Assembly: GCA_014138095.1 (NCBI GenBank)
Contig: JACGXE010000002.1
Coordinates: forward strand, 1-64,000
Length of the DNA: 64,000 nucleotides
Source of the DNA: Ochrobactrum sp. RH2CCR150
GTDB lineage: Bacteria; Pseudomonadota; Alphaproteobacteria; Rhizobiales; Rhizobiaceae
Direction: 5' to 3'
The notes beneath the pieces are model-generated. The model saw nothing but the letters and a program-made list of their open reading frames with translations, was not told the DNA's origin and ran no database searches. Shown in pieces: positions 1-20,471 of the stretch. Every line of letters begins with the position of its first letter. The stretch's first letter is position 1. The position numbers and the translations under genes are program-made.

Positions 1-77
1 TATGACTACAATCGGGCTCCGCCCTCACTCCGTCACACCCCGGCGCGAGTCTCATCCTGATTGACGCTGAATCTCAC

Positions 78-686
78 CTAGATTGCCGCTATGCAAATCT
101 GCGCTAAATCTGAGAACCCCTCTGCGGTTACCCCCTCGGCTATACGCGGATGTCCCTTTCGTCCAATGAGAGTGTAAGTTTCCTCAAACAGGTGCTGGGT
201 ATGAATTTGAGCATGCTCATTTTCGGGCGTCGCGATCGCCATATCTACTTCGCCGTCAGCCAATCGCTGATTAAGTCTTGCCGGGTTGAGCCGATGCACT
301 GCAACGCGCACCGCTGGCGCCTTCTCCTGTAACGCTAGTATGAGCGGTGTAACAACGACCGCTTCAATGTAGTCTGTACAAGCAATCGAAATGGTCAAGG
401 CCGCAGTTTCGGGCGAGAAATCCGCATGATTACGAAGCGTTCCTCTAAGTTGCTCCATTGCCATTCGGAGCGGGCCGATCAGATCCAAAGCCTTGGCTGT
501 TGGGATCATTCCCCGATGCGCGGGGATCAGCAACTGATCTTCGAACACGTCGCGCAGACGATTTAATTGCGCGCTTAGTGCTGGCTGGCTCAAATGCAAA
601 CGAGCTGCTGCCTTGGTGACGTTTCGCTCTATGAGCAAGGCTTCCAGGCTCACAAGCAAGTTAAGATCGACGCGCTTGATATCCAT
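78..686 (-). pseudogene. LysR-family regulator, truncated C-terminus
   Basis: The product has a clear N-terminal LysR winged helix (residues 4-62, with the NVTKAAARLHLSQPALS recognition region) and the first half of the periplasmic-binding-like effector domain. The frame stops at residue 202, while LysR proteins are usually about 300 residues, so roughly 100 residues are missing. The stop lies 77 bases from the window edge and I could not rejoin the remainder in another frame in that short stretch. It is divergent from the NmrA gene at 803, the usual arrangement for a LysR regulator and its target. Most likely a decayed regulator; the DNA-binding half could still be made. Confidence 0.6.
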
Positions 687-3606: not shown

Positions 3607-3623
3607 AGAACGCAGTGCGTTCT
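3607..3623. promoter_or_regulatory. Palindrome AGAACGC-AGT-GCGTTCT, likely repressor site
   Basis: Seven-base perfect arms around a 3-base centre, about 150 bases upstream of the DJ-1 start. Size and symmetry resemble TetR-type operators. No TetR gene is in the window, so the regulator would be elsewhere. Confidence 0.4.
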
Positions 3624-3675
3624 TTCGGACGTACAAAACCGCTCTAATTTTGTACTTTTACGCGTTGTACTTTAC

Positions 3676-3695
3676 AAAAATCGATTCCGATTTTT
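3676..3695. terminator. Hairpin AAAAATCG-ATTC-CGATTTTT
   Basis: An 8-base perfect stem with a 4-base loop and an A-tract/T-tract on opposite arms, so it could terminate in either direction. It sits between gap and the DJ-1 gene; it may end gap transcription or lie in the DJ-1 leader. Confidence 0.4.
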
Positions 3696-3769
3696 GCGCC
3701 GATTGGCGAACCGCAAGTCTGCGGAAGTATTCTGTGGAGGCGGCGAATTGCTTGAGGAGAAACCATGTG

Positions 3770-4504
3770 ATGTTCGCGCCCGGTAAACACTTGCATATAG
3801 GATCGTTGATTTTTGATCGTTTTGATCAAATTGATCTGACAGGTCCTTATGAAGTCCTTTCCGCTATTCCGAACGCCACATTCCACATAGGCGCAAAAAA
3901 GAAGCAAGTTGTGAAGGATTTCCATGGACTGCCATTAATGCCCACGATTACTCTGAGCGAAATGCCAAAGCTCGATATTTTGCATATTCCAGGAGGCCCA
4001 GGGCAGCAGGATGTGATGGAGAACGAGGAGGTCCTTGGTTTTATTCGCAAGCAGGCAGAGGCAGCGACATACGTGTTTTCCGTTTGCACCGGTGCGCTTG
4101 TGCTGGGCGCAGCCGGGCTTCTGATGGGGAGACGAGCGACCACGCACTGGGCATCAATGGAAGTCCTTCCGCTATATGGAGCAAATCCTGTCAACGAACG
4201 CGTTGTTATTGATGGCAAGTGGATTTTCGCGGCGGGTGTTACTTCAGGTATAGATGGGGCACTGCAACTCGCTGCTATGGTACGCGACGAAGATTTAGCC
4301 AAACAGATTCAGCTTTATATGCAGTATCAACCGGAACCACCTTTCGATAGTGGAACTCCCGACCGGGCTCCTGCGCATATCGTTGAGAGGCAACTTAATG
4401 CAGTTGCTGACCTCACCGCAGCACGTATCGAAACGGCAAAGAGAATAAGAGAAAAACTCATTGTTGAACGGCGCCACGAAGGAATTAGCGAAAAGAAGAG
4501 CTAA
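3770..4504 (+). CDS. DJ-1/PfpI family protein (isonitrile-hydratase-like)
   Basis: A 244-residue class-I glutamine-amidotransferase-like protein. Residues 9-30 form the first strand and the DLTGPYEV helix, whose Glu28 is the usual partner of the nucleophile. PGGPGQQ is at 74-80 and the nucleophile elbow SVCTG at 104-108 places the reactive cysteine at 106. Relatives hydrate isonitriles or act on glyoxals and other electrophiles. GAGGAGA at 3754-3760 fits the ATG at 3770; an in-frame GTG at 3767 is an alternative. A palindromic operator candidate lies upstream. It is one of four proteins of this fold within 10 kb. The exact substrate cannot be told from sequence. Confidence 0.8.
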   Translation: MFAPGKHLHIGSLIFDRFDQIDLTGPYEVLSAIPNATFHIGAKKKQVVKDFHGLPLMPTITLSEMPKLDILHIPGGPGQQDVMENEEVLGFIRKQAEAATYVFSVCTGALVLGAAGLLMGRRATTHWASMEVLPLYGANPVNERVVIDGKWIFAAGVTSGIDGALQLAAMVRDEDLAKQIQLYMQYQPEPPFDSGTPDRAPAHIVERQLNAVADLTAARIETAKRIREKLIVERRHEGISEKKS

Positions 4505-4540
4505 CGGCGATATCAGGATTTAGCTCTAATATTCTGAGAG

Positions 4541-4954
4541 CGACAGTGCAAAAGTCGGCCACGGAAGAGGCGGGATAACCCTGCTGCGCCGGAGTAAAAC
4601 TCAGCCACTTAATTAATCCTTCTGCTGCGACAGCAGGAAGGGGTAGGAATCTACACCTTGGAACTTTATCTGAGTGTTTGCCTGGTAGTCTCGGAAGGTA
4701 TGTGCCGGCGACAGGCCGAGAAGCATTTCAACATATCGCGTGACAGGATGGCCAAGATCGCGGCCTATTCGACACCGCCGGGCTATCAGTGGCGCACACC
4801 GATCGAGCATTGGCTCGACGACGATCTAAAGATGCCGCGCAAACCGCGCCATACCGCCAAGCGTGTGTTCGACCAGCTGCGTGACAAGTGCGGCTTGACC
4901 GGCGGCTCTGCGATTATCATGGATAACATGGGCGAGTGGAATCCGCGTCGCTAG
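4541..4954 (+). pseudogene. IS21-family istA relic
   Basis: The stretch from about 4541 (GTGCAAAAGTCGGCCAC) resembles an IS21-family end. The reading frame at 4658-4954 encodes 98 residues matching the N-terminus of IstA transposases: ELYLSV, then the helix-turn-helix RRQAEKHFNISRDRMAKI and the PRKPRHTAKRVFDQLRD region. IstA is normally about 500 residues with a DDE core; all of that and istB are missing. The frame loses homology just before its stop, where an IS3-type relic begins. It is dead, and marks past insertion activity between the DJ-1 gene and cydB. Confidence 0.75.
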
Positions 4955-5085
4955 AAGGTAGCTCGCTCCGTGATCTGGCGCACAGCGTCACGCTTAAATT
5001 CTTCTGTGAACTTCGATTTGCTCATGATACTCTTCCTGTCTCAAGATTAAGAAAGAGGGCGTCGACAAATCTCGGGGCTATTCAC
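4951..5085 (-). pseudogene. IS3-family orfA end fragment
   Basis: Read leftwards, TGAATAGCCCCGAG near 5071-5084 looks like an IS3-family terminal repeat. After GACAGGAAGAG there is an ATG at 5025 and 24 codons beginning MSKSKFTEEFKRDAVRQITE, the standard start of IS3-group OrfA transposases. The frame stops at 4951 exactly where it meets the IS21 relic. Only one end of the element remains, so it is a truncated relic butted to another truncated relic. Confidence 0.7.
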
Positions 5086-5236
5086 ACCTGTGTCAACAGA
5101 TCGTAAGGTTTTTTCAATTAAGCTTGTAACTATCTTGCCTTGGTAAAAATCAAAAATCCTTCAAACTTAGGCAGTCGTCAGTCTTATTTCTTACCAGCGA
5201 CTGCGAACCTCAGCCGCTGGTGATTTGACTTTTTAT

Positions 5237-6241
5237 TCAATGATATCCGTCTTCGGCGCGAACCTTTCCTCGAAAAACCCAGTATGCATATCCGGTATAT
5301 GCGAGGATAATCGGGATCAGAATTGCGGACCCAACCAATAGGAACCGCAAGGAGGTGAAAGGGGCTGAGGCTTCTCGAATCGTTAATGAATCCGGGATGA
5401 TGTATGGATAAAAGCTGATCCCCAGACCCGCATAGCTCAGAATGAATAGGCCTAGAGCTGCCAGAAACGGTCGAAGCTGTTTATTTTTTCTAAGCCCGTT
5501 TAACAAAAGATAGGCACATATTGCCAATAACAGCGGCACAAAGGATGAGAAAAAAGCGGTAGGCCAGCGGAACCATCGTTGAAAGTAAATTTCGTTAATA
5601 AACGGGGTCCAGATAGACACAATGCCGATCAATGCAAGCAGCAGGACCGTCAGGGGCTTGGCCAGAAATTGGCAGCGTATTTGCACATATCCCATGGTCT
5701 TCAGATTAAGCCAGGTGGCTCCAAGCAAAGCATAACCTACAAGAAGCGCAACTCCGCATAAAAGCGAAAATGGTGTCAGCCAATCCCACGGGCCGCCCGC
5801 ATAAGCATGGTTTTCGACGCTTATGCCCTGAATGAGGGTGCCGAGCGTAATTCCCTGCATGATCGCGGCAAGCGATGAGCCCATCCAAAATGCGATGTCC
5901 CAAAAGTGCGAGCCTGGCCTCGTTCGCCAACGAAATTCAAAAGCAACGCCCCGGAAGATCAAACTGATCAACATAATGATGATTGGCATGTAAAGCGCCG
6001 GGAGAACGATGGAATAGACCGAGGGAAAAACAGCCATAAGGCCGCCACCGCCAAGTACCAGCCAGGTTTCGTTGCCGTCCCATACCGGTGCGATGGTGTT
6101 TGTCATGAGATCACGGTGTTGTCGCTCCGGGAAAGCGGGAAATATGATTCCAACGCCCAGATCGAATCCGTCGAGAATGACATAGGCAAGAACAGCAAAG
6201 GCAATGATCCCAGCCCATACGAGTGAAAGATCAATTTCCAT
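5237..6241 (-). CDS. cydB: Cytochrome bd-type quinol oxidase subunit II
   Basis: A 334-residue polytopic membrane protein beginning MEIDLSLVWAGIIAFAVLAY, with the YVILDGFDLGVG signature of CydB and WDGNETWLV in helix 2. With CydA it forms the quinol:oxygen oxidoreductase of the inner membrane. The ATG at 6241 lies inside the end of cydA (11-base overlap), showing translational coupling; ten extra upstream codons in the open frame are not homologous. The small DUF2474-like subunit that often follows cydB is not here but at 1981. At 334 residues it is within the short CioB-like range. Confidence 0.92.
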   Translation of the reverse strand: MEIDLSLVWAGIIAFAVLAYVILDGFDLGVGIIFPAFPERQHRDLMTNTIAPVWDGNETWLVLGGGGLMAVFPSVYSIVLPALYMPIIIMLISLIFRGVAFEFRWRTRPGSHFWDIAFWMGSSLAAIMQGITLGTLIQGISVENHAYAGGPWDWLTPFSLLCGVALLVGYALLGATWLNLKTMGYVQIRCQFLAKPLTVLLLALIGIVSIWTPFINEIYFQRWFRWPTAFFSSFVPLLLAICAYLLLNGLRKNKQLRPFLAALGLFILSYAGLGISFYPYIIPDSLTIREASAPFTSLRFLLVGSAILIPIILAYTGYAYWVFRGKVRAEDGYH

Positions 6242-7652
6242 GATGTTCTCCGAGGTTATTACTGAGCGCATGTGCTGTAATCATTCCCGCGGTCCTTATC
6301 GGTGCGGAACCAAGTTCGTGATCATCCAGTTCAAGCGGGGGGCGTCGCATGAGCTTCAGCAGATAGACAACGCCTGCACCAAACACGATAAAGTAGACGA
6401 CGATAAAGATGACAAGCGATGTGCCAACGGCTGAAGCTGATATGGGAGAAAGACTGTCCGCTGTTCTCAATTGTCCGTAAACGGTCCATGGCTGTCGACC
6501 AACTTCGGTCGTGTACCACCCGGCAAGGACCGCGATAAAGCCCGATGGTCCCATGATCACGGCAAACCGATGCAATGATCGCGAACTGTATAGATGTCCT
6601 TTCCAACGACTCCAGATGGACCACAGGCCCACTCCTAACATTAGAAAGCCGAGCCCGACCATTATACGGAAGGTGATGAAGGGCATCAGCGCCGGCGGAC
6701 GCTGATCGCGCCACCACTCTTTCAGCCCCTTTATTTCGGAAGTGAGATCGTGCTTCAATATCAGCGAGCCGAGTTTTGGGATCTCAAGTGCGAATTTTGT
6801 TCGCTCCGCCTCGTCATCTGGTATTCCAAACAGTATCAAGGGAGCGCCATTCTTGTGTGTTTCAAAATGCCCCTCCATTGCCGCAATCTTAGCTGGCTGA
6901 TGTTCCAGCGTATTGAGACCGTGCACGTCCCCGAGCAAAATCTGAAGCGGCGTTCCTAGTGTGGCCATCCACATCGCCATTGAAAACATGATGCGAACCT
7001 GACGGTTTTGATTTCCTTTCAGCAAATGCCATGCTCCCACGGCACCGACAGCAAAAGCTGTTGTCAGGAAGGCCGCCACCACTGTGTGTGACATTCGATA
7101 GGGAAAAGACGGATTGAATACGATTTGCCACCAGTTTTCAGGTATAAATATACCGTTCGCATCTATGCTGAAGCCGGCGGGCGTATGCATCCAGCTATTG
7201 GCCGAGGTGATCCACGTCGCCGAGATCAGAGTCCCTAATGCGACCATGGCGACTGCGAACATATGCGCGCCATCTCCGACGCGCTCGCGCCCGAACAGGG
7301 CAATGCCGAGAAAGCCCGCTTCAAGGAAAAACGCCGTGAGAACCTCGTATCCCATCAGTGGTCCGATGATTGACCCGGCTCTGTGAGAAAGGACAGACCA
7401 GTTCGTTCCGAACTGATAGCTCATGACAATTCCGGATACGACGCCCATGGCGAAGGTCACCGCAAAGATCGTTTTCCAGTATTCGAACAGTTTCAAATAG
7501 GCCGGATCTCTCTTCCACAGCCAGAGACCGTTGAGAACTGCGAGGAAACTCGCGGTGCCAATGGAGAATGCTGGAAAAATGAAGTGAAAGGAAACGGTGA
7601 ACCCAAACTGAATTCGCGCAAGCATTTCTGCCTGTAAGCCAAAGAATGTCAT
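6231..7652 (-). CDS. cydA: Cytochrome bd-type quinol oxidase subunit I, short Q-loop
   Basis: A 473-residue CydA. The conserved haem-ligand regions are visible: FTVSFHF near residues 18-24 (haem b595 histidine), RMSHTVVAAF near 190 and ITFRIMVGLG (haem b558 methionine). GRQPWTVYGQLRT lies near the C-terminal side. The protein is about 50 residues shorter than E. coli CydA, and the loop between helices 6 and 7 is short, as in the CIO (cyanide-insensitive oxidase) group. It opens the cydAB operon. Subunits of this type support respiration in low oxygen or in the presence of cyanide, NO or sulfide; cyanide insensitivity here is family inference. Confidence 0.92.
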   Translation of the reverse strand: MTFFGLQAEMLARIQFGFTVSFHFIFPAFSIGTASFLAVLNGLWLWKRDPAYLKLFEYWKTIFAVTFAMGVVSGIVMSYQFGTNWSVLSHRAGSIIGPLMGYEVLTAFFLEAGFLGIALFGRERVGDGAHMFAVAMVALGTLISATWITSANSWMHTPAGFSIDANGIFIPENWWQIVFNPSFPYRMSHTVVAAFLTTAFAVGAVGAWHLLKGNQNRQVRIMFSMAMWMATLGTPLQILLGDVHGLNTLEHQPAKIAAMEGHFETHKNGAPLILFGIPDDEAERTKFALEIPKLGSLILKHDLTSEIKGLKEWWRDQRPPALMPFITFRIMVGLGFLMLGVGLWSIWSRWKGHLYSSRSLHRFAVIMGPSGFIAVLAGWYTTEVGRQPWTVYGQLRTADSLSPISASAVGTSLVIFIVVYFIVFGAGVVYLLKLMRRPPLELDDHELGSAPIRTAGMITAHALSNNLGEHHGN

Positions 7653-7795
7653 CGCCCGGCTCCCCGGAAGAAGCCCGCACTACCAACACAAAAGGTGCTG
7701 TCGAGTGAAAACGATCGCCGACAAGCGAATAAAAACACAAATCGTGAATACCACGGGTGAATTGAAGCAACAGTTTGCACTTTTGCATCTCCTGT

Positions 7796-7814
7796 CCAAA
7801 TTGATATCGTTTGG
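7796..7814. promoter_or_regulatory. Inverted repeat upstream of cydA
   Basis: CCAAA and TTTGG arms flank TTGATATCG, about 150 bases before the cydA start. The centre contains an FNR/FixK-like TTGAT half, but the second half-site is poor. Candidate control site only. Confidence 0.25.
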
Positions 7815-7894
7815 ATAGAAGGGTAGGCAAAAGGCTTAAAGGACGATGTTCCCTCAATTCAGGACACCGCAGTAATTTCGCATGTGATTCGCGA

Positions 7895-8845
7895 TCACGC
7901 CCCGGAGTTTCCCTGACTAAAACGGCGGCGGTACTCCGTGGGTGTCAGACCAACGACACGCCGGAAGCGCGCCCGGAAGGTCACCGCTGAACCAAAACCG
8001 GACAGGAATGCTGTTTGATCTATGGACGTATCACTTTCCTCAAGCAATTCGCGTGCGCGATCGATGCGGGCCATGAGAAGCCACTGCAAAGGGGTCGTAC
8101 CGGTCTGCTCTTGAAATCGCCGGGCAAAGGTGCGCGAACTCATATTTGCGCGCGCCGCGAGGCTATCAACGGTATGGGCACTGTCCAGATTGTCTCGCAT
8201 CCATTCGATCAAGGGCGTCAAGCTGGCCAGAGATCCCGGCAGTTCGTGGCGGATGAATTGTGCCTGACCACCGTCCCGGTGCAATGGCGCGACAGTGAGA
8301 CGTGCGGCATCGGCGGCGACTGACTGGCCGTAATCTCGTCGCACAAGATGAAGGCACATATCCAGTCCTGCCGACGCACCGGCCGAAGTTACGATACGGC
8401 CTTCGTCTACAAAAAGCACATTCGGTTCGACTGTTATGCAGGGATGAAGTCTCGCAAGGTCCTCTGCAAAACGCCAATGGGTAGCAGCGCGTCTCCCGTC
8501 AAGCAGACCGCTCGCTGCCAATATAAAGGCTCCGGTGCATATTGACGCCACTCTTGCACCGCGCCCGTAAGCTTTTCGTAGTGCACCGCTTACGGCTGCC
8601 GGAATGTCTCGAAACGGATATTCGCTTCCCGGAATTATGATCGTTTCGGCCTGCGCAAGGTCAGCCAAACCTTGTCGTACCTGCATGTCAAAGCCAGCCG
8701 CGCGAATTGTGCGCTTCGGCGCACAAATCCTAACTTCATAAGCTTTGCTTCCATCTGCCAGACGCGCCATTGCAAACACCTGATAGGCGATGCCAAAATC
8801 CAGTGGCACCACGTCATCAAGCACCAAAACAGCAATTTTATGCAT
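7895..8845 (-). CDS. GlxA-type regulator (DJ-1/PfpI domain plus AraC HTH)
   Basis: 316 residues in two parts. Residues 1-185 form a DJ-1/PfpI-like domain with SICTGAF (Cys103) at the elbow. Residues about 212-310 form an AraC/XylS pair of helix-turn-helices (TVDSLAARANMSSRTFARRF, then ETAFLSGF-like and TPTEYRRRF). GlxA-type proteins sense small molecules through the first domain and act as activators. A GGAG site precedes the ATG. The gene is divergent from the stand-alone DJ-1 gene at 8984 across 138 bases, so that gene, and perhaps those behind it, is the likely target. Confidence 0.85.
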   Translation of the reverse strand: MHKIAVLVLDDVVPLDFGIAYQVFAMARLADGSKAYEVRICAPKRTIRAAGFDMQVRQGLADLAQAETIIIPGSEYPFRDIPAAVSGALRKAYGRGARVASICTGAFILAASGLLDGRRAATHWRFAEDLARLHPCITVEPNVLFVDEGRIVTSAGASAGLDMCLHLVRRDYGQSVAADAARLTVAPLHRDGGQAQFIRHELPGSLASLTPLIEWMRDNLDSAHTVDSLAARANMSSRTFARRFQEQTGTTPLQWLLMARIDRARELLEESDTSIDQTAFLSGFGSAVTFRARFRRVVGLTPTEYRRRFSQGNSGA

Positions 8846-8983
8846 TGAATTCGGCTCCTGCCGGAAAATTGTAAACTGCTATTTGCCGTGGCTGCAATCA
8901 ATCGTTTTTTGTCATTCCTGCCACTCACGTAGATTGTTTGAACGCGCTATTCAATAGGAATGTTCAAGACGAAGGAAACGACG

Positions 8984-9715
8984 ATGACGGATCAAAGAAA
9001 GAATAAGACTGAAGGCCGCCAGTTACAGATTGGCATGGTCATTTTCCCCGGCTTTACGCTGCAGGACCTTGCCGGACCCCAGACGGCGTTCGGTCTCCAT
9101 GCCAAAACCCATATAATCTGGAAGACCATGGAGCCCGTCCCAACAGATATGGGCGTCACCATGAATCCCACGATCACGATTGACGAAGTTCCCGACAATC
9201 TCGACGTACTGTTCGTTGCCGGTGGGGGAGGGACACCTGAAATCATGAAGGATCAGGAGTTCCTCGATTTTATTGCTCGCGCCGGAAAAACTGCCACCTA
9301 TATAACCGCAGCATGCACGGGCTCTGTGCTTCTCGCAATGGCGGGATTGCTTGAGGGTTACCGGGCGGCCACCTACTGGCCGTTTTATGAGCCCCTGATA
9401 GCACTGGGTATCGAGCCAAGCTATGAACGTGTCTGCGTTGACAGAAATCGCATTACTGGCGGGGGTGTCACAGCCGGTATCGATTTCGCACTTCAGGTCA
9501 TCGCGGAACTCAAAGGACAAGACGCGGCCGAGTTCACACAGCTTGTTCTCGAATACGACCCGCAGCCCACCATGAACTCAGGTCATCCCCGAAGTGCTCG
9601 CCCAGAAATTGTCGCACAGGTGAAGGGTTTATGGGGGCGAACTGACGCAGCCTTGAAAGTGGCGGAGGAACATATGCAGCGCCGGTCCCAATCGGCAAGG
9701 CTCGCTTCTGCCTGA
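8984..9715 (+). CDS. DJ-1/PfpI family protein
   Basis: 243 residues with the same fold as the protein at 3770: FPGFTLQDLAGPQTAF near residues 21-36, a glycine-rich VAGGGGTPE turn, and TAACTGSVLL with the reactive cysteine at 111. The glutamate that usually pairs with this cysteine is replaced here (GPQTAF instead of GPYEVL), so the chemistry may differ from the first paralogue. The ATG at 8984 is chosen because AAGGAA precedes it; an upstream in-frame ATG at 8960 lacks such a site. Divergent GlxA-type gene is the probable regulator. Likely a hydrolase or hydratase acting on a small electrophile. Confidence 0.78.
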   Translation: MTDQRKNKTEGRQLQIGMVIFPGFTLQDLAGPQTAFGLHAKTHIIWKTMEPVPTDMGVTMNPTITIDEVPDNLDVLFVAGGGGTPEIMKDQEFLDFIARAGKTATYITAACTGSVLLAMAGLLEGYRAATYWPFYEPLIALGIEPSYERVCVDRNRITGGGVTAGIDFALQVIAELKGQDAAEFTQLVLEYDPQPTMNSGHPRSARPEIVAQVKGLWGRTDAALKVAEEHMQRRSQSARLASA

Positions 9716-9747
9716 TTGAAGAATAGCTGTTTTCAACCTTAGATCAT

Positions 9748-9784
9748 GGGTGCCGCTGATCGAACCGATGGTTCTGCGGCACCC
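9748..9784. terminator. Long hairpin after the DJ-1 gene
   Basis: GGGTGCCGC pairs with GCGGCACCC, with a second inner stem GAACC-gat-GGTTC. There is no long T-run after it, so it may act as an mRNA 3' stabiliser rather than a strong terminator. Confidence 0.5.
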
Positions 9785-9935
9785 CTCTCTAAGGCTCACA
9801 GCATGATATTTCGGCCAAGCATACAGTATGGCTAGCAATGAGGGAAATACGTCTTTTACTTTGCTCAGCCTTTACGGGAGAAGCAGGGTGGATCGTGAGG
9901 TCCAACTTCATTCCGTAACGGAGGCTGTCTTCATA

Positions 9936-10346
9936 ATGACCAGACGCATCATCAACGTTCCAGCTAACTCGCCTCTCTTTCCCAGTCAGGCCGAGTTCGA
10001 AAAATATGGATACTCACCCGCAGTAAGTGCAGGCGGCTTGCTGTTTATTTCTGGCCAGGTCGCACTAGAGCCGGATGGGTCCGTGTCTGACGATATTACA
10101 GAACAGGTGGACCTTGTTTTTCAGAAAACGTTTGAAGTGCTTCGCTGGGCTGGCCTGACGAAGGACGATCTGGTCGAGATATACAGCTATCACGTGAACC
10201 TCCCCGAACATTTTTCTCAGTTTATCGCGGTAAAGGAAAAATATCTCACGTCATCCTTTCCCGCGTGGACAGCACTTGGTGTCGAAGCATTGGGTCTGCC
10301 TGAGTTGAAGATTGAAATGCGCAGTATTGCGGCTTTTCGTGATTGA
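9936..10346 (+). CDS. RidA/YjgF-family protein
   Basis: 136 residues with Rid-family features: YSPAVSAGGLLFISGQVA near residues 25-42, a DLVEIYSYHVNL strand and the closing IEMRSIAAF. The classical RidA arginine of the C-terminal RVE/CVA signature seems to be shifted, so this is probably a Rid2-7 type rather than canonical RidA. RidA hydrolyses reactive enamines from PLP enzymes; the others are less well known. The ATG at 9936 follows GGAGG at 9920-9924, and the upstream in-frame ATG at 9828 has no homology. It lies between a DJ-1 gene and an SDR gene on the same strand. Confidence 0.8.
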   Translation: MTRRIINVPANSPLFPSQAEFEKYGYSPAVSAGGLLFISGQVALEPDGSVSDDITEQVDLVFQKTFEVLRWAGLTKDDLVEIYSYHVNLPEHFSQFIAVKEKYLTSSFPAWTALGVEALGLPELKIEMRSIAAFRD

Positions 10347-10468
10347 TCGGACAAAGCCAACCAAATTGCCGCCTCCTCGTTTTTCCCTCGTGAGTCAACC
10401 ATATCGCTCACCAGCGGCGTGTGACGACCATTGAATACGAAACCATGATCTCCATTAAGGAACAGCCT

Positions 10469-11209
10469 ATGAATGAATTTGCAGGTAAGCGCGCCCTCAT
10501 CACTGGTGCTTCACGTGGCATTGGCGCGGCCATCGCATTGGAATTGGCTGAAAGAGGCGCAGACATCGCATTCACCTACGTCAAATCCACCACTGCTGCC
10601 GAAGAACTGGTCAAGAAGATCGAAGCAAAAGGTCGGCGAGCCTTTGCGATTCAGGCCGATAGTGCGGACGCGTCAGAGATTAAACGCTCAGTCGATGAAG
10701 CTGCTTCAAAACTCGGTGGTCTGGACATTCTGGTGAACAATGCGGGGGTATTGTTCCAGGGGCTGCTCGAGGATATGCCACTGGAACATATCGACAAGAT
10801 TCTCGCGGTGAATGTCCGGGCAGTGGTAGTGGCTTCGCAAGCTGCAATCCCATACCTTGGCGAAGGCGGCAGGATTATCTCGATCGGATCATGCCTTGCG
10901 GAACGTGTCGCTTTTGAAGCCGTGGCTGTTTACTCGATGTCAAAGTCGGCGCTTCTGGCATTTACGCGCGGTTTGTCACGCGAACTTGGCTCGCGAGGCA
11001 TCACGGTCAACCTCGTGCATCCCGGGCCGACCGAAACGGAAATGAGTCCGCCAGATGCGCCGGGCGCCGCCGCGATGCGCGCGCAAATTGCACTTGGCAA
11101 ATATGGTACGGACAAGGATGTTGCGGCTGCAGTTGCTTTCATCGCCAGTTCGGCTGCCCGGCACATCACAGGCACAGGGCTGAACGTCGATGGCGGCATG
11201 AACGCTTAA
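10469..11209 (+). CDS. Short-chain dehydrogenase/reductase
   Basis: A 246-residue classical SDR: TGASRGIG cofactor motif at residues 12-19, NNAG at about 88-91, catalytic Ser in SIGSCLA, and the YSMSK tyrosine-lysine pair. The C-terminal TGTGLNVDGG matches the FabG-like group. The residue context after strand 2 (YVKSTTAAE) suggests NADP(H), but this is weak. AAGGA precedes the ATG at 10469 by about 7 bases; the upstream start at 10421 lacks this. It may form one transcript with the RidA gene 120 bases before. The substrate is unknown. Confidence 0.85.
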   Translation: MNEFAGKRALITGASRGIGAAIALELAERGADIAFTYVKSTTAAEELVKKIEAKGRRAFAIQADSADASEIKRSVDEAASKLGGLDILVNNAGVLFQGLLEDMPLEHIDKILAVNVRAVVVASQAAIPYLGEGGRIISIGSCLAERVAFEAVAVYSMSKSALLAFTRGLSRELGSRGITVNLVHPGPTETEMSPPDAPGAAAMRAQIALGKYGTDKDVAAAVAFIASSAARHITGTGLNVDGGMNA

Positions 11210-11316
11210 GCCTATCAGAAATTGCTCAACACAGGGCGTATCTTGAACTTTATGTGCAAAGGTTTGCGTGTGTGTTTCAGATATCTCCTGGTGGGCTTTT
11301 TTATAGAAGTGATATG

Positions 11317-12258
11317 ATGAGTATCAGTCATTATCTCAAGACTATTGGTCGGGGCGCGCGGGGGGCTCAATCCCTCTCTCGCGAACAGGCCGTAGACTTG
11401 TTTGCTCAAGTTCTGGACGGTACCGTAACTGACTTGGAAATAGGTGCATTTTGCCTCGCCATGCGCAGTAAAGGTGAGACGCCGGAGGAAATGGCCGGCT
11501 TTCATGATGCGCTACGACTGAGGCAGTCAATCATACCTCTTTCCCCTTCGGGGCGGGCAACCGTCATATTGCCAAGCTATAATGGTGCGAGAAAGCTCCC
11601 TGTCCTGACGGCTCTGCTCGGATTGCTCCTCGCCGAAAAGGGCATACGGGTTATTGTGCATGGATTGAATCACGACCCTGGACGAACGACAGTCGCGGAG
11701 ACATTTTCGGCGCTAGGACTACCCCATTGTGGTCACGTGGACGATGTGTCTGACGGTATCAATTTTCTACCTGTCGATGTTTTTGCGCCAAAGCTTGCAA
11801 AGCTTGTGGATGTCCGCAAAACCATCGGTCTAAGGAACTCCGCGCACAGCCTGGTCAAAATCCTCAATCCCACTTCTGCGCGGGCGCTGGTCATCGGAAG
11901 CTACACGCACACGGCCTACGCGGAAATCATGTCTGAGACCTATCGGCTGCTCGGCGCAGACGCGATGCTGCTGAGGGGGATCGAAGGAGAATCCATTACC
12001 GATGCAAGGAAGATTCAACAGGTCGATGTATTCGTTGCGGGTGTCCAGACGCGGTTGCAAGAAGCTGAAAAGTCACCTCTTGTCGCTGCACCAGAATGGC
12101 CTGACGATATTACCGCATCCGCCACTGCAAACTATATAGAAGAAGTTATGGATCGCCGCAGACCGGTTCCCGAACCTATTCTAAGGCAAATCATGCATAT
12201 CCAAGATACGCTACTTGTTATGGAAAAGCAGGTGAAGCCTCCGATCCCAAACGGGTAG
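11317..12258 (+). CDS. YbiB/TrpD2-like glycosyltransferase-fold protein
   Basis: 313 residues resembling anthranilate phosphoribosyltransferase. There is a helical N-terminal part with the LSREQAVDLFAQVLDG and GAFCLAMRSKGETPEE segments, then the phosphoribosyltransferase-like core with a VDVRKTIGLRNSAHSLVKILNP stretch typical of YbiB. The TrpD substrate-binding glycine loop is altered (PSYNGARKLP), so anthranilate synthesis is unlikely; YbiB homologues bind nucleic acids without known substrate. Adjacent ATGs at 11314 and 11317 are both possible and the ribosome site is weak. No trp genes are near. Confidence 0.75.
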   Translation: MSISHYLKTIGRGARGAQSLSREQAVDLFAQVLDGTVTDLEIGAFCLAMRSKGETPEEMAGFHDALRLRQSIIPLSPSGRATVILPSYNGARKLPVLTALLGLLLAEKGIRVIVHGLNHDPGRTTVAETFSALGLPHCGHVDDVSDGINFLPVDVFAPKLAKLVDVRKTIGLRNSAHSLVKILNPTSARALVIGSYTHTAYAEIMSETYRLLGADAMLLRGIEGESITDARKIQQVDVFVAGVQTRLQEAEKSPLVAAPEWPDDITASATANYIEEVMDRRRPVPEPILRQIMHIQDTLLVMEKQVKPPIPNG

Positions 12259-12340
12259 GAAGTTATTTGGAAAGAGCGTCAAAAGTATCCTACAAATGGC
12301 ACGAAAGCGTTGTGCAGAGGGCTACAATTCGTTGTTGGCA

Positions 12341-13390
12341 TCAGAATGAAGATGCTTTTTCTTCAAAAGTGCCCTTTCCGCTCTGATGCGTTGCACTTGG
12401 GGCTGGCTCTGTCGACATACGACGCAGGCTCTGAGGAGGATGACCGAAGATGCGAAGAAATGCACGTCGCATTCTTTCAGGATCGGTAAAACCAACCTGA
12501 CGGGCAATGACCTCTATCGGCTCTACGCCCCGCTCGACACGGACGCGGGCCACCTCCGCTCTTAAACGTTCCACGGCTTTAGCTGGTGTTTCTCCAGTCT
12601 CTGCGAGAAATGAACGTCCGAACTGCCGCGGGCTAAGATGTGCTACATCTGCAAGACGCTCGGTGGATAGAGACTCTGTCAAATGTTCACGAATGTAGGT
12701 GAGTACGGTTCTGATACGATCAGAAGCCGGTTCCATATCCAGCATAGCCGAGAATTGCGATTGTCCGCCTGGGCGGCGATGATACACAACGAGCATCTGA
12801 GCCACGCTTTTTGACGTCTCAGTGCCTAAATCCTCCTCTATCATTGCCAGAGCAAGATCGATGCCGGCTGTAATACCAGCGGATGTCCAGAGATCGCCGT
12901 CTTTCGTGAATATGCGATCTCCATCCACCTTAATTTTCGGATACATTCGTTGAAGTTGACCGGCGTATTTCCAGTGAGTTGTAGCCCGACGTCCATTTAG
13001 GAGGCCGGCGGCTGCGAGTAAAAATGTGCCAGTGCAGACGCTTGCAACCCGGCGTGCAGAATGCAGACTCTTATGAAATGTACCGTCGATTTCAAAGCCT
13101 ATCTCAGCGGGATTTATAAGTACGTCTCCTCCGGTGAAAATAATCGTATCGTACGGCTCCGATCGGATGGCCTCGGTCTGAACGGCCAAGCCCGACGAAC
13201 TTGTGATAAGCCCTCCCTCTTTCGAGACAATGTGAAGATTGTACGGCAAACATTCATTCTGCCTGCTGGCGATTTCGAATGTTGAAAGAGGGCCGCTTAA
13301 ATCTTGGATCTGGAATTGGGGATACACGACAAACGCTACATCCCGAGTCATCAATACAGGCCCGTTGCTAATTGCGGCAATCATATTCAT
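12341..13390 (-). CDS. GlxA-type regulator (DJ-1/PfpI domain plus AraC HTH), second copy
   Basis: 349 residues. The DJ-1/PfpI-like part is at residues 15-200 with the SVCTGTF elbow (Cys119) and GRRATTHW after it. The AraC DNA-binding part is at about 225-325 (LSTERLADVAHLSPRQFGRSF, and IARQVGFTDPERMRRAF). A 25-residue polar tail follows. GAGAGG is 6 bases before the ATG at 13390; ten earlier codons in the frame are non-homologous. It faces the DUF3817/CopD/SDR genes across 320 bases, which are candidate targets. It is clearly diverged from the paralogue at 7895. Confidence 0.83.
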   Translation of the reverse strand: MNMIAAISNGPVLMTRDVAFVVYPQFQIQDLSGPLSTFEIASRQNECLPYNLHIVSKEGGLITSSSGLAVQTEAIRSEPYDTIIFTGGDVLINPAEIGFEIDGTFHKSLHSARRVASVCTGTFLLAAAGLLNGRRATTHWKYAGQLQRMYPKIKVDGDRIFTKDGDLWTSAGITAGIDLALAMIEEDLGTETSKSVAQMLVVYHRRPGGQSQFSAMLDMEPASDRIRTVLTYIREHLTESLSTERLADVAHLSPRQFGRSFLAETGETPAKAVERLRAEVARVRVERGVEPIEVIARQVGFTDPERMRRAFLRIFGHPPQSLRRMSTEPAPSATHQSGKGTFEEKASSF

Positions 13391-13713
13391 CGAGAACCTC
13401 TCAGCGCATGGAGTCTTCAACAGTCACACTTCCAGCTTGCTCTTTCCTATCATGACTTCGCTAAGGGTACATCTCGGTATGGCGAAAAAAGAGGGAAGTG
13501 CGTCATTTCCTCGCGCTAGCCGCTGCTGTATGAAAAGTGAAATAGAAATTTTGAATGCGCCAATGGAAGCGATTTGTCCTTGGAAACCGTTGCGTTTGAG
13601 ATGACGAACTTATTCGGATCGTCACCTTAGGCGGCAAGGGAGAAAGACAATATCCCACCTTCCGGTAAGCGGTCGCAGCGGTGGCATCGAAGACTTGGAC
13701 AGGATTATCGGTG
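13391..13713. other. Intergenic, divergent promoter region
   Basis: About 320 bases between the second GlxA-type gene and the DUF3817 gene. It must hold both promoters. Short open frames exist but none has a recognisable family or good start. Confidence 0.35.
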
Positions 13714-14046
13714 ATGAGCTCGGTGAATATTGAGGAAGAGTTATCGCAGTTGCGGCGGATGCGATTGGCATCTGTGATCGAAGCCACAACACTCATATTG
13801 CTTCTTTGCATCGCAGTACCGTTAAAGCATCTCAATGGATTTCCTATGGCTGTCTCGGTCATGGGCCCCATCCACGGTATAGCTTTCGTCTACTATGCGT
13901 GGGCCATTATCCAAACGGTTGCGGGTGGTGACTACGACCGGTTTGAGGTCGTCCGGATGGTCGTCTCAGCCTTCATTCCTTTTGGTGGCTTTCTAAACGA
14001 CCGCGCGCTTGCACGACGTCAAGCGACCCTACAGTCTTCAATTTAA
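13714..14046 (+). CDS. DUF3817 small membrane protein
   Basis: 110 residues with about three transmembrane helices. The layout of LRRMRLASVIEATTLILLL, then the AVPLKHLNGFP segment and MGPIHGIAFVYYAW is that of DUF3817, a family of unknown function often near transporters. AGGA lies 10-12 bases before the ATG at 13714. Stop to next start is 9 bases, so it is co-transcribed with the CopD-like gene that follows. Confidence 0.75.
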   Translation: MSSVNIEEELSQLRRMRLASVIEATTLILLLCIAVPLKHLNGFPMAVSVMGPIHGIAFVYYAWAIIQTVAGGDYDRFEVVRMVVSAFIPFGGFLNDRALARRQATLQSSI

Positions 14047-14055
14047 GGAAACCCG

Positions 14056-14487
14056 ATGGACTACCTTTGGTTAAAAGCAATCCATGTTGCTGCGGCTATC
14101 ATCTGGATTGGGGGCATGTTGACCGTTGGCATCACAACAACCGCTGTCAACGTTATTCCTGTAGACGTGTCGGGGGCGCGCCGAGGTGCATTCTTTGCGC
14201 GGATTCGTCGCTGGGATCGAAGGGTGACAACGCCTGCGATGCTGATGGTCTGGGCATTCGGGCTCGCGCTAGCGGTCACTGGTCAATGGCTGTCACAGCC
14301 CTGGATAATAATCAAAATTGCCCTCGTCATTGTACTTTCCGGGATTCACGGCATGCTATCGGGCGGTCTGAGACGTCTCACTCTTGAGCAGCAGCCACGC
14401 GGTATTGCCGCCATCCGGTTTGCTGCTTTCGGCATCATCTGCATCGTGATCGTCGTGGTCGGTCTTGTCGTCATCAAGCCGTTCTAG
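14056..14487 (+). CDS. CopD/HemJ-like membrane protein
   Basis: 143 residues with four predicted helices. WLKAIHVAAAIIWIGGML at residues 5-22 is the HemJ/CopD-type first helix with its histidine, and there is an RRWDRRVTTPAMLMVWAFG segment in the second. Such proteins bind haem or copper or form part of redox chains. AAGGAAACCCG immediately precedes the ATG. It sits between DUF3817 and an SDR in what looks like one operon. It is too short and unlike HemJ in the rest of its length to be called protoporphyrinogen oxidase. Confidence 0.65.
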   Translation: MDYLWLKAIHVAAAIIWIGGMLTVGITTTAVNVIPVDVSGARRGAFFARIRRWDRRVTTPAMLMVWAFGLALAVTGQWLSQPWIIIKIALVIVLSGIHGMLSGGLRRLTLEQQPRGIAAIRFAAFGIICIVIVVVGLVVIKPF

Positions 14488-14502
14488 CCATTGGAGTTGT
14501 CT

Positions 14503-15264
14503 ATGTTTTCTGGACGAAATGAACCTCATGTATCGCAACGCACCATGCTATTGACAGGTGCAAGCCGAGGTATTGGCCATGCAACCGTAAAGCTTTTTTA
14601 TCAAAGCGGATGGCGGGTTCTAACCGTGTCGAGGGCTGCTTTCGCCGAGGATTGCCCATGGCCGGGAGGTCGTGACAACCATATCCAGGCGGACTTGTCG
14701 CGGGCTGACAGCTATAAAACATTGGCAGCAGAAGTAAGCGAACGTCTTGGAGGCAGCGGTCTTTATGGAATTGTCAATAATGCGGCAATTTCCCCCAAGC
14801 TTGAGGGCGGCGTTCGTATGGGGATCTCAGATACGTCATATGAGGACTGGCTGGCCGTCTTTAACGTTAACTTATTTTCAGCGGCGGCATTATCCCGGCT
14901 TCTCTTGCCTGAACTCAAGGCGACGAACGGGGCAATTGTCAACGTGACATCAATCGCTGGCTCTCGGGTTCACCCATTCGCAGGCGTTGCATATGCCTGT
15001 TCTAAAGCAGCTTTAGCTGCGTTGACACGCGAGCAAGCTTCCGAATTTGCCCGTTACGGAATTCGAGTCAATGCGATCGCACCTGGAGAAATCGACACGT
15101 CGATACTCTCACCAGGTACGGAAAAAATAGTCGCCGACCAAATCCCCATGCATAGGCTCGGTGATCCAACGGAGATCGCCCGTGTAATCCTTTTCCTGTG
15201 TTCCGGTGAAGCGTCGTATATCAACGGTGCGGAAATCAATGTGAACGGCGGCCAGCATGTTTGA
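14503..15264 (+). CDS. Short-chain dehydrogenase/reductase
   Basis: 253 residues with TGASRGIGHA near the N-terminus, NNAAIS for the structural NNAG motif, catalytic serine in VTSIAGS and YACSK for the Tyr/Lys pair. The end INGAEINVNGGQHV fits the FabG-like group. GGAG at 14493-14496 supports the ATG at 14503; a TTG at 14491 would overlap that site. It is 15 bases after the CopD-like gene, so it is the third gene of a small operon. NAD(P)-dependent oxidation or reduction of an unknown alcohol or ketone. Confidence 0.83.
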   Translation: MFSGRNEPHVSQRTMLLTGASRGIGHATVKLFYQSGWRVLTVSRAAFAEDCPWPGGRDNHIQADLSRADSYKTLAAEVSERLGGSGLYGIVNNAAISPKLEGGVRMGISDTSYEDWLAVFNVNLFSAAALSRLLLPELKATNGAIVNVTSIAGSRVHPFAGVAYACSKAALAALTREQASEFARYGIRVNAIAPGEIDTSILSPGTEKIVADQIPMHRLGDPTEIARVILFLCSGEASYINGAEINVNGGQHV

Positions 15265-15386
15265 TCGGTCTAGATAGGATTGGGATAATACACATCGGAT
15301 CGTGATCTTATCTCGCTTGATGTCGGAAGGTCTGTTTTAGGACGGAACGGCTTTTGGCTTCACCAAGCACTAAGGAGTCAGTCATC

Positions 15387-16442
15387 ATGAAAACAATATT
15401 AGTTGCAGGGGCTGTCGGTGTCATAGGGCGCGCGATACTCGAACATTATGAGCAGAAAAAGGATGTGAGAGTCATAGGGCTGTCTAGGCGCCGTCCGGAA
15501 TTCAAAACGCGAGCCGAACATATCTCTGTGGATCTTCTTGACAAGGCTGATACAGCGTCGAAGCTTGGGACCGTAGATGGTACGACGCATATCGTTTATG
15601 CGGCCTACAAGGAGCTACCGACACGTCACGAGCTCGTTGCTCCAAACCTCGCAATGCTTTGCAATATTGTGAAAACCGTAGAACAGACGTCTCCATCGTT
15701 GCAGCACGTCACGCTCATGCAAGGCGGGAAAGCCTACGGATGTCATCTCGGGCCCTTTCCGACACCTGCGCGCGAAGATGATCCCAGACATATTTCACCC
15801 AACTTCTATTACGATCAAGAGGACTTTTTGCGGGTGCATTCGGTCGGAAAGCAGTGGTAATGGTCTGCGCTCAGGCCAGAGGCTGTATGCGGAATGGCAG
15901 TCGGAAATCCGATGAACCTACTCATGGTGATTGCAGTCTACGCCACGATCTGTCGGGCACTGAGTTTGCCATTGACATTCCCTGGAACCGACGCGTCGTA
16001 TAACACGCTTTACCAAGTGACCGATGCCCGGATTCTTGCGCAAGCAACTGAGTGGGCCGGATCTACGGATGCCGCGCGAGGCCAAGTGTATAACATCACC
16101 AATGGAGACTATTTTCGTTGGGTGCGCTTGTGGCCTCGCATCGCGGAGTTTTTCAAATTGCCGATCGGAGCACCGCTTCCGTTCTCGATGCAAGAGATGA
16201 TGGCAGATAAAAAAGCTCTCTGGGACGGCCTTGTCCGCGATCATGGGCTTGCACCCTATGGCTATGACGAAATCGCGAACTGGAACTTCGGAGATTTGGT
16301 TCTGAAAACCCAATACGACAACATTACCAGTACGATCAAAGCCAGACGGGATGGTTTTGCGGACTGCATCGATACAGAAGACATGTTCAAAGAACTTTTT
16401 ACGAATTTGATCGAGAAGCGGATCATTCCAACACCAGTTTAG
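15387..16442 (+). pseudogene. PRISE-type NAD(P)-dependent reductase with in-frame stop
   Basis: The frame encodes a 351-residue-equivalent protein of the progesterone-5-beta-reductase/iridoid-synthase-like SDR family: N-terminal AGAVGVIGRAI, NFYYDQEDFLR in the middle and WSALRPEAVCG after it. A single TAA at 15858-15860 lies between GKQW and WSALRP, and the reading frame continues unchanged on both sides, so this is a nonsense change, not a frameshift. AAGGAG at 15372 marks the start at 15387. The catalytic tyrosine and cofactor loop are in the first half, substrate residues in the second. Probably inactive unless the stop is a sequencing error or is read through. Confidence 0.8.
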
Positions 16443-16577
16443 GATAGATGGGGCGGTGGCTGTTAGCTTCTAGCAGTTAGTGATGTGTAAGAGTTAGTTG
16501 AAAAGACATGGTTATATTACTTCCCAGAAGTGCTGCTAGATGGATATCTTTAATGAATGTCGGTATCGGTAGTTGCG
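16443..16577. other. Island-side intergenic
   Basis: AT-richer sequence between the PRISE pseudogene and the tRNA-like fragment. No gene was seen. Confidence 0.35.
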
Positions 16578-16591
16578 TGCCCCCGCAACCA
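16578..16591 (+). other. tRNA 3'-end fragment, probable island attachment site (attR)
   Basis: TGCCCCCGCAACCA equals the end of the T-stem, the 3' acceptor strand, A73 and CCA of an alphaproteobacterial initiator tRNA(fMet), with A72 as in that tRNA. The rest of the tRNA is absent: the bases before it (GGTATCGGTAGTTGCG) do not form a T-loop. A strong terminator follows 12 bases later, as after a real tRNA gene. This is the expected product of phage-type integration into a tRNA 3' end. Sequence style changes at the same place. The tRNA identity is from memory of the family. Confidence 0.6.
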
Positions 16592-16602
16592 AAACATTCC
16601 AG

Positions 16603-16631
16603 AAAAGCCCCGCAATTAATGCGGGGCTTTT
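16603..16631 (+). terminator. Perfect rho-independent terminator
   Basis: AAAAGCCCCGCA, loop ATTAA, TGCGGGGCTTTT: a 12-base perfect stem with T-tract in both directions. It fits as the original terminator of the tRNA whose 3' end lies at 16578. Confidence 0.85.
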
Positions 16632-17038
16632 GACGTTTTAAGCACTGAAAAGATCGGAAGAGCGCTCCCAAGGCTATGTTCACACAGCCGCGGCACCACA
16701 CAGGCACAGAGCGTAGTTTACCCCGTAAAGACATCAGGAAAAGGCTCAAGCGCCTCTTCAGCGCATCAAACCCAAAACAAGCCCAAGACCTCGAAATAAG
16801 CCAGAGCGCAACAAGACACAGAAAAACCCCGCTGCGTAAGCGGCGGGGCTTTCGACGTTTAATGTTCACGATGAGTGGGGAGGGTACCCCCTGTGGTCAA
16901 ACCCCCGCCTCACGCCATACAGAATGGCCGCCGCCAAGCTCCACATGATCGAGTTGCGGGTGCCCCTGCTTTGTCTGTGTAAGACTTATAGCGCTACTGC
17001 AGCTATTTAGAAGTTGCACTCATTAGCCGGCTTCAGCC
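16632..17038. other. Intergenic between island end and thiC
   Basis: About 400 bases holding the thiC terminator (16827-16848) and no convincing gene. A 14-base string at 16651-16664 equals the start of a common sequencing adapter; see the rejected list. Confidence 0.4.
16827..16848 (-). terminator. Terminator of thiC
   Basis: CCCCGCTGC / GCGGCGGGG form a 9-base stem (one G-T pair) closed by a GTAA tetraloop. On the minus strand it is followed by five Ts, so it most likely ends thiC, whose stop is 190 bases before. Confidence 0.75.
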
Positions 17039-18998
<1,960 letters not shown>

Positions 18999-19154
18999 TT
19001 AAAATTATGCACGGACAGTTTTGGTCGTCAAGACCGGTTGGTTGGGCGCGCCTCTATTCCTGACCATGGATGTAAAGCAAAGCGGTGAGGCTTGGCTTCT
19101 CTTTTTCCATTTGGCATCATCACTGATGCGGCTCTTTACAGAATCCGAAGCGCT

Positions 19155-20471
19155 TTAATTCACCAGATCCCTGCCTTTGGTTTCCGGCGTGGTGATCATC
19201 ACATAGATCGCCGGGATTGCCATCAATGTGGCGTAGATCGCGACCGCGAAGGGCGTACCGAAAATTTCGAGCAGCCACGTACCGATGATCGGAGCAAGCG
19301 CTCCACCCAGCACGGTCGCAACCGAATAGGACGTCGACATCGCCGTGTAGCGAACGCGTGCCGGGAAGAGTTCGGTGAAATAGGCCGACATGCCACCCAC
19401 GATAATGCCGTGGAACGAGAGTGTCAGCACGGTTGCCCAGGTGAGCGTCGCGGTGTCTGCGCCGGGCGGCAGGCTGAAGAGCCAGAAGCCTGCGCCGATA
19501 CCGCCCACGAGACCCACCAGCGTAACGGCCTTGCGTCCGATACGGTCTGCGGTGGCGCCTGCCGCGAGTATGACTGCGACTTCGGCAATGGAACCGACGA
19601 ACAGTGCGCCAAGGGCAGCTTCACGTGGCACCTTGAGGAACACGGTCGCCAGCACGACGAAGAATGTGGAGAAGAGATAGAAGAGCGCGCTTTCGCCAGC
19701 CTTGACGAACAGGACGCGCAGCATGTTGGCGCCCTGGGTCGTAATCGCTTCGCGCAAGGGTGCTTTGACGGCTTCGGTCTTCTGTTCCTGCAGATGGATG
19801 AAAGCAGGGGATTCCTCGACCTTGCGCCGGACCCAAAGACCGAGACCGATCAGCAGGATGGAGGCGATAAAGGGAATACGCCAGGCCCATTCCACAAAAG
19901 CGTCCGATCCGAAATGACCGATGACCAAACCGATAACGGCGGTCGCAAGTACATTGCCAGCCGGTCCGCCGATCATGGGAAAGCCGGTCCAGAGACCGCG
20001 CTGCTTTGCCGGAAGGCTTTCGGCGATCAGCACTAGCGCGCCAGTGGATTCGCCGCCGATGGCAAAACCTTGCAGCAGGCGCATCAGGAGAAGCAGAAGC
20101 GGAGCGAACACGCCAATCTGCTGATAGGTGGGGAGTAAACCCATGGCAACAGTCGCACCGCCCATCATGAAGAGACTGATAACGAGCGCCTGCTTGCGCC
20201 CGATCCTGTCACCCAGAACACCGAAGAACCAGCCTCCGGCGGGACGGGCGATAAAGCCGACAGCCTGCGTAGACAGGGCTGCAATCAGGCCGGTGATCGG
20301 ATCAACCACCGGAAAAAACGCGGTGTTGAAAACAAGTGCGGCGCAAAAAGCGAAAACCGCGAAGTCATACCACTCGATAATCGTGCCAGTGCTGGCCGCG
20401 AAAAGAAGCCGTATCGATGATTTTTGCGTCTGCGCGGCATCCATTGTGCCCGCCGGTGCTGATGTGTTCAT
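19155..20471 (-). CDS. MHS-type major facilitator transporter
   Basis: 438 residues with twelve helices, of the metabolite:H+ symporter family (ProP, KgtP, ShiA relatives). FAASTGTIIEWYDFAVFAF near residues 20-40 is the MHS signature; GxLxDRIGRK-type loops occur as GVLGDRIGRKQAL and ATADRIGRKAV. It imports a carboxylate or zwitterion. GGAGGAGC precedes the ATG at 20471. Its promoter region holds three operator-like sites shared with hmgA, so its substrate is probably an aromatic acid feeding homogentisate, such as homogentisate or phenylacetate-type acids; that is inference. Confidence 0.85.
   Translation of the reverse strand: MNTSAPAGTMDAAQTQKSSIRLLFAASTGTIIEWYDFAVFAFCAALVFNTAFFPVVDPITGLIAALSTQAVGFIARPAGGWFFGVLGDRIGRKQALVISLFMMGGATVAMGLLPTYQQIGVFAPLLLLLMRLLQGFAIGGESTGALVLIAESLPAKQRGLWTGFPMIGGPAGNVLATAVIGLVIGHFGSDAFVEWAWRIPFIASILLIGLGLWVRRKVEESPAFIHLQEQKTEAVKAPLREAITTQGANMLRVLFVKAGESALFYLFSTFFVVLATVFLKVPREAALGALFVGSIAEVAVILAAGATADRIGRKAVTLVGLVGGIGAGFWLFSLPPGADTATLTWATVLTLSFHGIIVGGMSAYFTELFPARVRYTAMSTSYSVATVLGGALAPIIGTWLLEIFGTPFAVAIYATLMAIPAIYVMITTPETKGRDLVN

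What the first reader, a model, noticed from the sequence alone, without database searches (positions are those of the whole stretch)
15900..16650. A tRNA 3'-end remnant marks the right end of an accessory island
TGCCCCCGCAACCA at 16578-16591 equals the 3' end of an alphaproteobacterial initiator tRNA, without the rest of the tRNA, and is followed at once by a strong tRNA-type terminator. To its left the DNA is visibly less GC-rich and holds IS relics and damaged genes; to its right is packed core-like DNA beginning with thiC. That is how attR of a tRNA-integrated island looks. The tRNA identity is recalled, the rest is seen. The integrase and intact tRNA should lie left of position 1.
Basis: partly seen in the sequence, partly recalled or inferred. 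Interest (0 to 1): 0.7.

Follow-up and report, generated by a model that had tools for sequence, protein, structure and literature searches.

The report
Right end of a tRNA-inserted island
The short tRNA fragment is most likely the right-hand scar of a mobile DNA island of roughly 114,000 bases that a serine-type integrase inserted into an initiator-tRNA gene beside a ribosomal RNA operon; the left end lies on another contig of the same genome.

Summary
The 14-mer at 16578-16591 is real; the genome's three other exact copies end intact tRNA-Met genes at contig ends. Left of it, 16558-16577 is an arm whose only partner in this genome (up to 1 mismatch) is C17:94906, beside an intact tRNA-Met and a large-serine-recombinase gene. 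The arms, 18 of 20 alike, form a dyad around TGCCCC: attL on C17, attR in the window. C17:1 and window base 1 are opposite ends of one IS21-type element and share the 7-base flank AATCTGC, so they were probably adjacent: island about 114 kb. C17 has TraG/Trb genes and an RlxS-like relaxase. Two relatives lacking the arm have an intact tRNA-Met before the same right-hand genes. Corrections: thiC is not core (0 of 23 same-genus relatives), the GC step is at about 19 kb, and relatives can have a second tRNA fragment here, so the 14-mer alone proves nothing. Serine integrases at tRNA genes are rare but known (PMC3218068, passages). New variant of a known kind.

The parts
16558..16577 (+). island-side arm of attR (one half of attP)
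   Evidence: 18 of 20 identical to the arm at attL on C17, read on the integrase strand; pattern with up to 1 mismatch in 13 of 35 genus genomes, own included
16578..16591 (+). attR core: 3' end of tRNA-fMet, 14 bases; crossover predicted within TGCCCC (16578-16583)
   Evidence: dyad; the crossover position is inferred
16592..16638 (+). native flank of an rrn-linked tRNA-fMet with its terminator-like hairpin
   Evidence: 100% identical to the flank of the intact tRNA on C4
96..16577 (.). right end of the island: NmrA-like, GAPDH, DJ-1/PfpI and AraC-type proteins, cytochrome bd, short-chain dehydrogenases, a split PRISE-like gene
   Evidence: 6 of 33 other genus genomes have a match at E<=1e-30, 8 candidates scored per genome; Pfam
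1..95 (+). one end of an IS21-type element, cut by the contig end
   Evidence: 98% match to one end of the intact copy G003:C2:70684-73307, which encodes an IstB-like and a Mu-transposase-like protein
96..102 (+). AATCTGC, probable 7-base target duplication shared with the end of C17
   Evidence: the G003 copy is also flanked by a 7-base repeat, CTCGTGG
16639..16959 (+). rest of an rrn 3' flank repeat that also lies downstream of the tRNA on C12
   Evidence: 16578-16959 is 89% identical to C12:128705-129083
16960..19117 (-). thiC with TPP riboswitch, a patchy insert outside the island
   Evidence: in G048 at 93%; not found between tRNA and 19118/19140 in G016 and G021; riboswitch

Best explanation
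16558-16591 is attR, the right junction of an integrated island. Its left junction, attL, is at C17:94906-94931: an intact, probably rrn-linked tRNA-fMet met at once by the 3' end of a large serine recombinase gene. The circular element would carry a palindromic attP (arms TGTCGGTATC[A/G]GT[G/A]GTTGCG around TGCCCC), and the integrase would recombine it with the 3' end of tRNA-fMet. The element brings its own copy of that end, so the tRNA is rebuilt at attL, and the displaced 3' end is left at attR in front of the old terminator. Shown: both junctions, their dyad, an integrase gene with three diagnostic domains, intact tRNA at the corresponding place in two relatives, transfer genes on C17. 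Inferred: that C17 and C2 are joined through an IS21-type copy (size about 114 kb), the crossover point, rrn linkage in this strain (seen only in relatives), and any present-day mobility.
For: 14-mer and tRNA copies. Two arms in the own genome at up to 1 mismatch, C2:16558 and C17:94906, 18 of 20 alike (1.6e-9 for one comparison of random bases). In four relatives arms lie on one contig in the orientation of island ends: G003:C45 (89.7 kb apart), G005:C445 (57.5 and 65.1 kb), G011:C2 (31.4 kb), G041:C2 (71.1 kb). Integrase: Pfam Resolvase, Recombinase, Zn_ribbon_recom above cut-offs. tRNA-Met in the same locus for 11 of 20 integrase relatives from 40 genomes, own included, and 17 of 28 further loci from the order; 23S-5S-tRNA order in the 3 of 3 integrase loci scanned for it, L035, L037, L043. 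IS21-type ends on C17 and C2 with the same 7-mer; the third end, on C16, has another. Uninterrupted tRNA in G016 and G021. TraG, TrbB, TrbL on C17 above NCBIfam cut-offs. DNA like C17:40-45 kb lies on contigs that carry arms in G005, G014, G020, G041, G043.
Against: C17 and C2 are separate contigs and nothing held spans the IS21-type copy. Two left ends of that element and one right end were found, so C16 is a formal alternative partner. G016, G021 and own C12 have a degenerate second fMet fragment between tRNA and terminator; the window's flank lacks it, so the original site was C4-like or was remodelled. In G011, G014 and G041 the arm at attL differs from the attR arms at positions where the own genome's two agree, and some arms have no island-like partner: in G014:C2 the two arms face the wrong way, in G046:C2 they are 941 kb apart. 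Seven of 28 integrase relatives (L228-L234, 57-62% identity) have no tRNA-Met in the locus; L230 is cut by its contig end. Several absence counts rest on few scored candidates per genome (8; 4). No excision or transfer was observed.
Confidence: 0.9

Rival explanations
1. The 14-mer is only the end of the old, degenerate second fMet copy that this kind of rrn flank carries in relatives; the DNA to its left arrived independently.
For: G016, G021 and own C12 have such a second fragment before the terminator.
Against: In G016 and C12 that fragment keeps further tRNA bases to its left (ACAAATCC before TGC), whereas the window has the 20-base arm that also lies beside the integrase on C17 and at tRNA-less 14-mers in many genomes.
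Confidence: 0.05
2. It is an attR, but of another element than the one whose attL is on C17; C2:1 joins a different contig.
For: Two left IS ends (C17, C16) compete for one right end; an attR arm followed by integrase-like DNA, as in a tandem junction, occurs in G018:C2:877445.
Against: Only two arms found in the genome, one of each kind; the 7-base flank matches C17 and not C16.
Confidence: 0.08
3. Chance or a plain hairpin: TTGCG..CGCAA is a stem and the tRNA likeness is accidental.
For: The sequence is palindromic.
Against: 61 identical bases with the C4 tRNA 3' end and flank; in 61 of 119 hits of a core pattern the 10 bases outside the pattern match TGTCGGTATC at 9 or 10 places.
Confidence: 0.01

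Closest known systems
tRNA-inserted genomic islands as defined by Islander (PMC4383910; passages seen)
   Same: Intact tRNA at one end, 3' fragment at the other, integrase gene next to the intact tRNA, tRNA rebuilt by the element.
   Different: The integrase is a large serine recombinase; that paper says only tyrosine integrases were known to target tRNA genes.
Serine-recombinase elements in RNA genes: Mycobacterium AICEs in tRNA-Leu and phage phiRSM1 in tRNA-Ser (PMC3218068, passages); Dehalococcoides islands in ssrA (PMC3146451, passages)
   Same: Serine integrase; RNA gene as target; for ssrA a 20-bp repeat at the far end and tandem islands.
   Different: Target is the initiator tRNA, other phyla, and Trb/TraG transfer genes with an RlxS-like relaxase here.
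Mesorhizobium ICEs of the ICEMlSym(R7A) backbone (PMC8627217; passages)
   Same: trb, traG and rlxS-type transfer genes; tRNA-Met is among the sites listed there.
   Different: 73 of its 79 elements carry tyrosine recombinases; five IMEs and one ICE carry serine recombinases, whose sites I did not see stated, so one could be a relative.
Streptococcal ICEs with a serine integrase in rumA (PMC4701971; passages)
   Same: Integration exchanges the 3' part of the integrase gene, changing its C-terminus.
   Different: Protein-coding target; here the last residues come from the antisense strand of a tRNA.

Membership tests
tRNA-inserted genomic island | intact tRNA at one end and its 3' fragment at the other | tested here: met
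   the two ends are on different contigs
tRNA-inserted genomic island | both ends on one contiguous stretch | tested here: inconclusive
   IS21-type ends with a shared 7-base flank, not sequenced through
tRNA-inserted genomic island | uninterrupted site in relatives | tested here: met
   G016:C1 and G021:C1; both also have a degenerate tRNA fragment and lack thiC there
large serine recombinase | Resolvase, Recombinase and zinc-ribbon domains | tested here: met
large serine recombinase | recombines attP with attB | not testable with these tools
   sites inferred from junctions only
ICE with RlxS/Trb backbone | TraG, TrbB, TrbL | tested here: met
   above NCBIfam cut-offs
ICE with RlxS/Trb backbone | RlxS relaxase and TrbI | tested here: inconclusive
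   RlxS 658 bits of 850 needed; TrbI 202 of 386
ICE with RlxS/Trb backbone | rdfS, fseA and the rest of the trb set | not tested
   not searched

The most novel reading that the evidence does not exclude
Integration state is written into the integrase itself: in the chromosome its last residues come from the antisense strand of the initiator tRNA (565 aa, ending VAGAGFEPAAFRL), in the circle from the far half of attP (predicted 569 aa, ending VAGARNYRYRHSLKISI). The exchange could help set the direction of recombination or tie integrase expression to the rrn-linked tRNA, in a family found across Alphaproteobacteria.
Probability: 0.12. Interest if true: 0.65.

Novelty: new variant of a known kind. 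Interest (0 to 1): 0.45.

Why it matters
Serine integrases at tRNA genes have been called unknown (PMC4383910, 2014) and rare (PMC3218068, 2011). Here initiator tRNA is a repeated target: integrase relatives at E<=1e-140 in 31 of 297 genomes of the order, own included, with only 4 candidates scored per genome, and tRNA-Met in 17 of 28 fetched loci. Since several rrn operons each offer a site, such islands may build up beside rRNA operons, just where short-read contigs break, and so be missed (inference). The attR arm is a simple tag for finding them.

Tried and rejected
Searching window bases 1-400 in the own genome found only itself; the IS end was recognised later from relatives. Paper searches returned nothing; all paper searches cover only the held open-licence library. 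Rejected: thiC as start of core DNA; the GC step as boundary mark; the 14-mer alone as proof; calling 4535-4959 an IS (no Pfam match).

Searches scored 8 candidates per genome, four, at most 14, so their absences are soft. C17 was compared with relatives in two of its five fetched pieces, 1-20000 and 40001-60000. One search looked at 19 of 20 integrase loci (L050, a fragment, left out); at 28 of 36 listed matches (two more, L034 and L045, were; six had no locus).

Full report
OBSERVATION. The 14-mer is at 16578-16591 and has no other match in the window with up to one mismatch; 0.03 were expected. ARAGORN finds no tRNA in the window. The genome (5.54 Mb, 40 contigs; the window is C2:1-64000) has four exact copies: this one and three at the ends of C4, C12 and C17, each the 3' end of an intact tRNA-Met with anticodon CAT. 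That these contigs end at rrn operons is inferred; in relatives the order 23S-5S-tRNA is visible (L035, L037, L043).

THE ARM. A search of 40 genomes with 16440-17060 gave two main classes of hit: those starting at the 14-mer and running right, and those ending at or just after the 14-mer and coming from the left. The left class is a conserved arm. The pattern TGTCNGTATCRGTNGTTGCG with up to one mismatch is in 13 of 35 genus genomes, own included; the backward control pattern matched once, in G018. The pattern was written after both own arms had been seen. The own genome has two, C2:16558 and C17:94906, 18 of 20 alike when both are read towards the core, forming an inverted repeat around TGCCCC. 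That is how the halves of one attP should look. In G003, G005, G011 and G041 arms lie on one contig in the orientation of island ends, 31 to 90 kb apart; in G014:C2 and G046:C2 the pairs on one contig do not look like island ends.

THE LEFT JUNCTION. At C17 the intact tRNA-Met meets the 3' end of a 565-aa gene with Resolvase, Recombinase and zinc-ribbon domains. Its frame ends inside the antisense strand of the tRNA. Read across the inferred attP it would be 569 aa with another C-terminus. An exchange of integrase 3' ends on integration is in print for rumA ICEs (PMC4701971, passages). In one search, 18 of 28 order-level relatives end in a peptide of the same kind (VAG..F....FRL), 12 of 19 do.

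CLOSING THE GAP. C17:1-98 and C2:1-95 match opposite ends of one 2624-bp element, G003:C2:70684-73307, which encodes an IstB-like ATPase and a Mu-transposase-like protein and is flanked by a 7-base repeat, CTCGTGG. The 7 bases outside the element are AATCTGC at both C17 and C2; at C16, the only other end found, they are TGTTTAT. The chance of one 7-mer match is 6e-5. So reverse C17 - IS - C2 is the likely order, in the orientation attL and attR need: about 94.8 + 2.6 + 16.5 = 114 kb. This is inferred, not read through.

SITES WITHOUT THE ISLAND. G016:C1 and G021:C1 match the window from 19118 and 19140 on (90% and 85% up to 22000) and have an intact tRNA-Met near their starts; neither has an arm within one mismatch. 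G048 matches from 16907 on, thiC included, at 93%, and has no arm either, but its contig ends before any tRNA. In G016, G021 and own C12 a degenerate second fMet fragment lies between tRNA and terminator. Window 16578-16638 is instead identical to the simpler arrangement on C4, while 16578-16959 is 89% like C12: the flank is a mosaic.

CONTENT. Window 1-16600: 6 of 33 other genus genomes match at E<=1e-30, the longest being G013 with 1.5 kb at 95%. C17:1-20000: short stretches only, namely 1029-1874 (67-85%), a dispersed repeat near 15729-15894, and the IS end. C17:40-45 kb has relatives at 73-89% in many genomes. TraG, TrbB, TrbL and ParA pass NCBIfam cut-offs; RlxS (658 of 850 bits) and TrbI (202 of 386) do not. 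C17 also carries biotin genes (bioB passes its cut-off, bioF does not; the other gene names are my reading of the frames) with a 71% copy of the stretch at C2:556949-561790, a MvaI/BcnI-type endonuclease with a cytosine methylase and Vsr, a Drt5-like reverse transcriptase (RVT_1 just under its Pfam cut-off), a HerA-like ATPase and a HigB-like gene.

DISTRIBUTION. Integrase relatives: 15 of 40 genomes at E<=1e-60 and 31 of 297 genomes of the order at E<=1e-140, own included in both. tRNA-Met lies in the fetched locus in 11 of 20 and 17 of 28. The 11 misses among the 28 are L228-L234, L239, L242, L246 and L249; L239 and L249 still end in a tRNA-like antisense peptide, and L228-L233 end at GCCCCCGCAACCA-like sequence in the opposite sense.

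NAMES. Genus Brucella sensu lato rests on equal contig lengths: G005:C445 with NZ_JAMJWE010000005.1, G041:C1 and C2 with NZ_ML636800.1 and NZ_ML636801.1. The species of the window is not known. 'IS21' and 'initiator tRNA' are names I give from IstB and from recalled alphaproteobacterial tRNA sequence.

PAPERS. Passages only: PMC12884075, PMC4701971, PMC8627217, PMC4383910, PMC7589603, PMC10654092, PMC3146451, PMC12765450, PMC11476347, PMC3218068. I saw no description of an fMet-specific serine-integrase family in the listings of searches or in these passages; that is limited to the held library.

Noticed in passing
window 16960-19117: thiC with a TPP riboswitch is patchy in the genus and sits beside an rrn flank: perhaps a second accretion at the same place.
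   Followed up: partly
L003 and L023 (C12), L214, L215: A degenerate second tRNA-fMet with a palindrome-like insert lies roughly 150 bases downstream of the intact tRNA.
   Followed up: partly
L228-L233: An integrase clade of 60-62% identity ends at a GCCCCCGCAACCA-like sequence in the opposite sense, as if the integrase lay at the attR end.
   Followed up: partly
L014 (G018:C2:877445): attR arm followed directly by DNA like the integrase 3' end: looks like a tandem island junction.
   Followed up: no
L030 15729-15894: A dispersed repeat of about 165 bases with many copies across the genus.
   Followed up: no
L032 5761-10617: Biotin gene stretch on the island, 71% identical to another copy at C2:556949-561790.
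   Followed up: no
window 31886-32188: ar45 sRNA next to a speF leader (Rfam).
   Followed up: no
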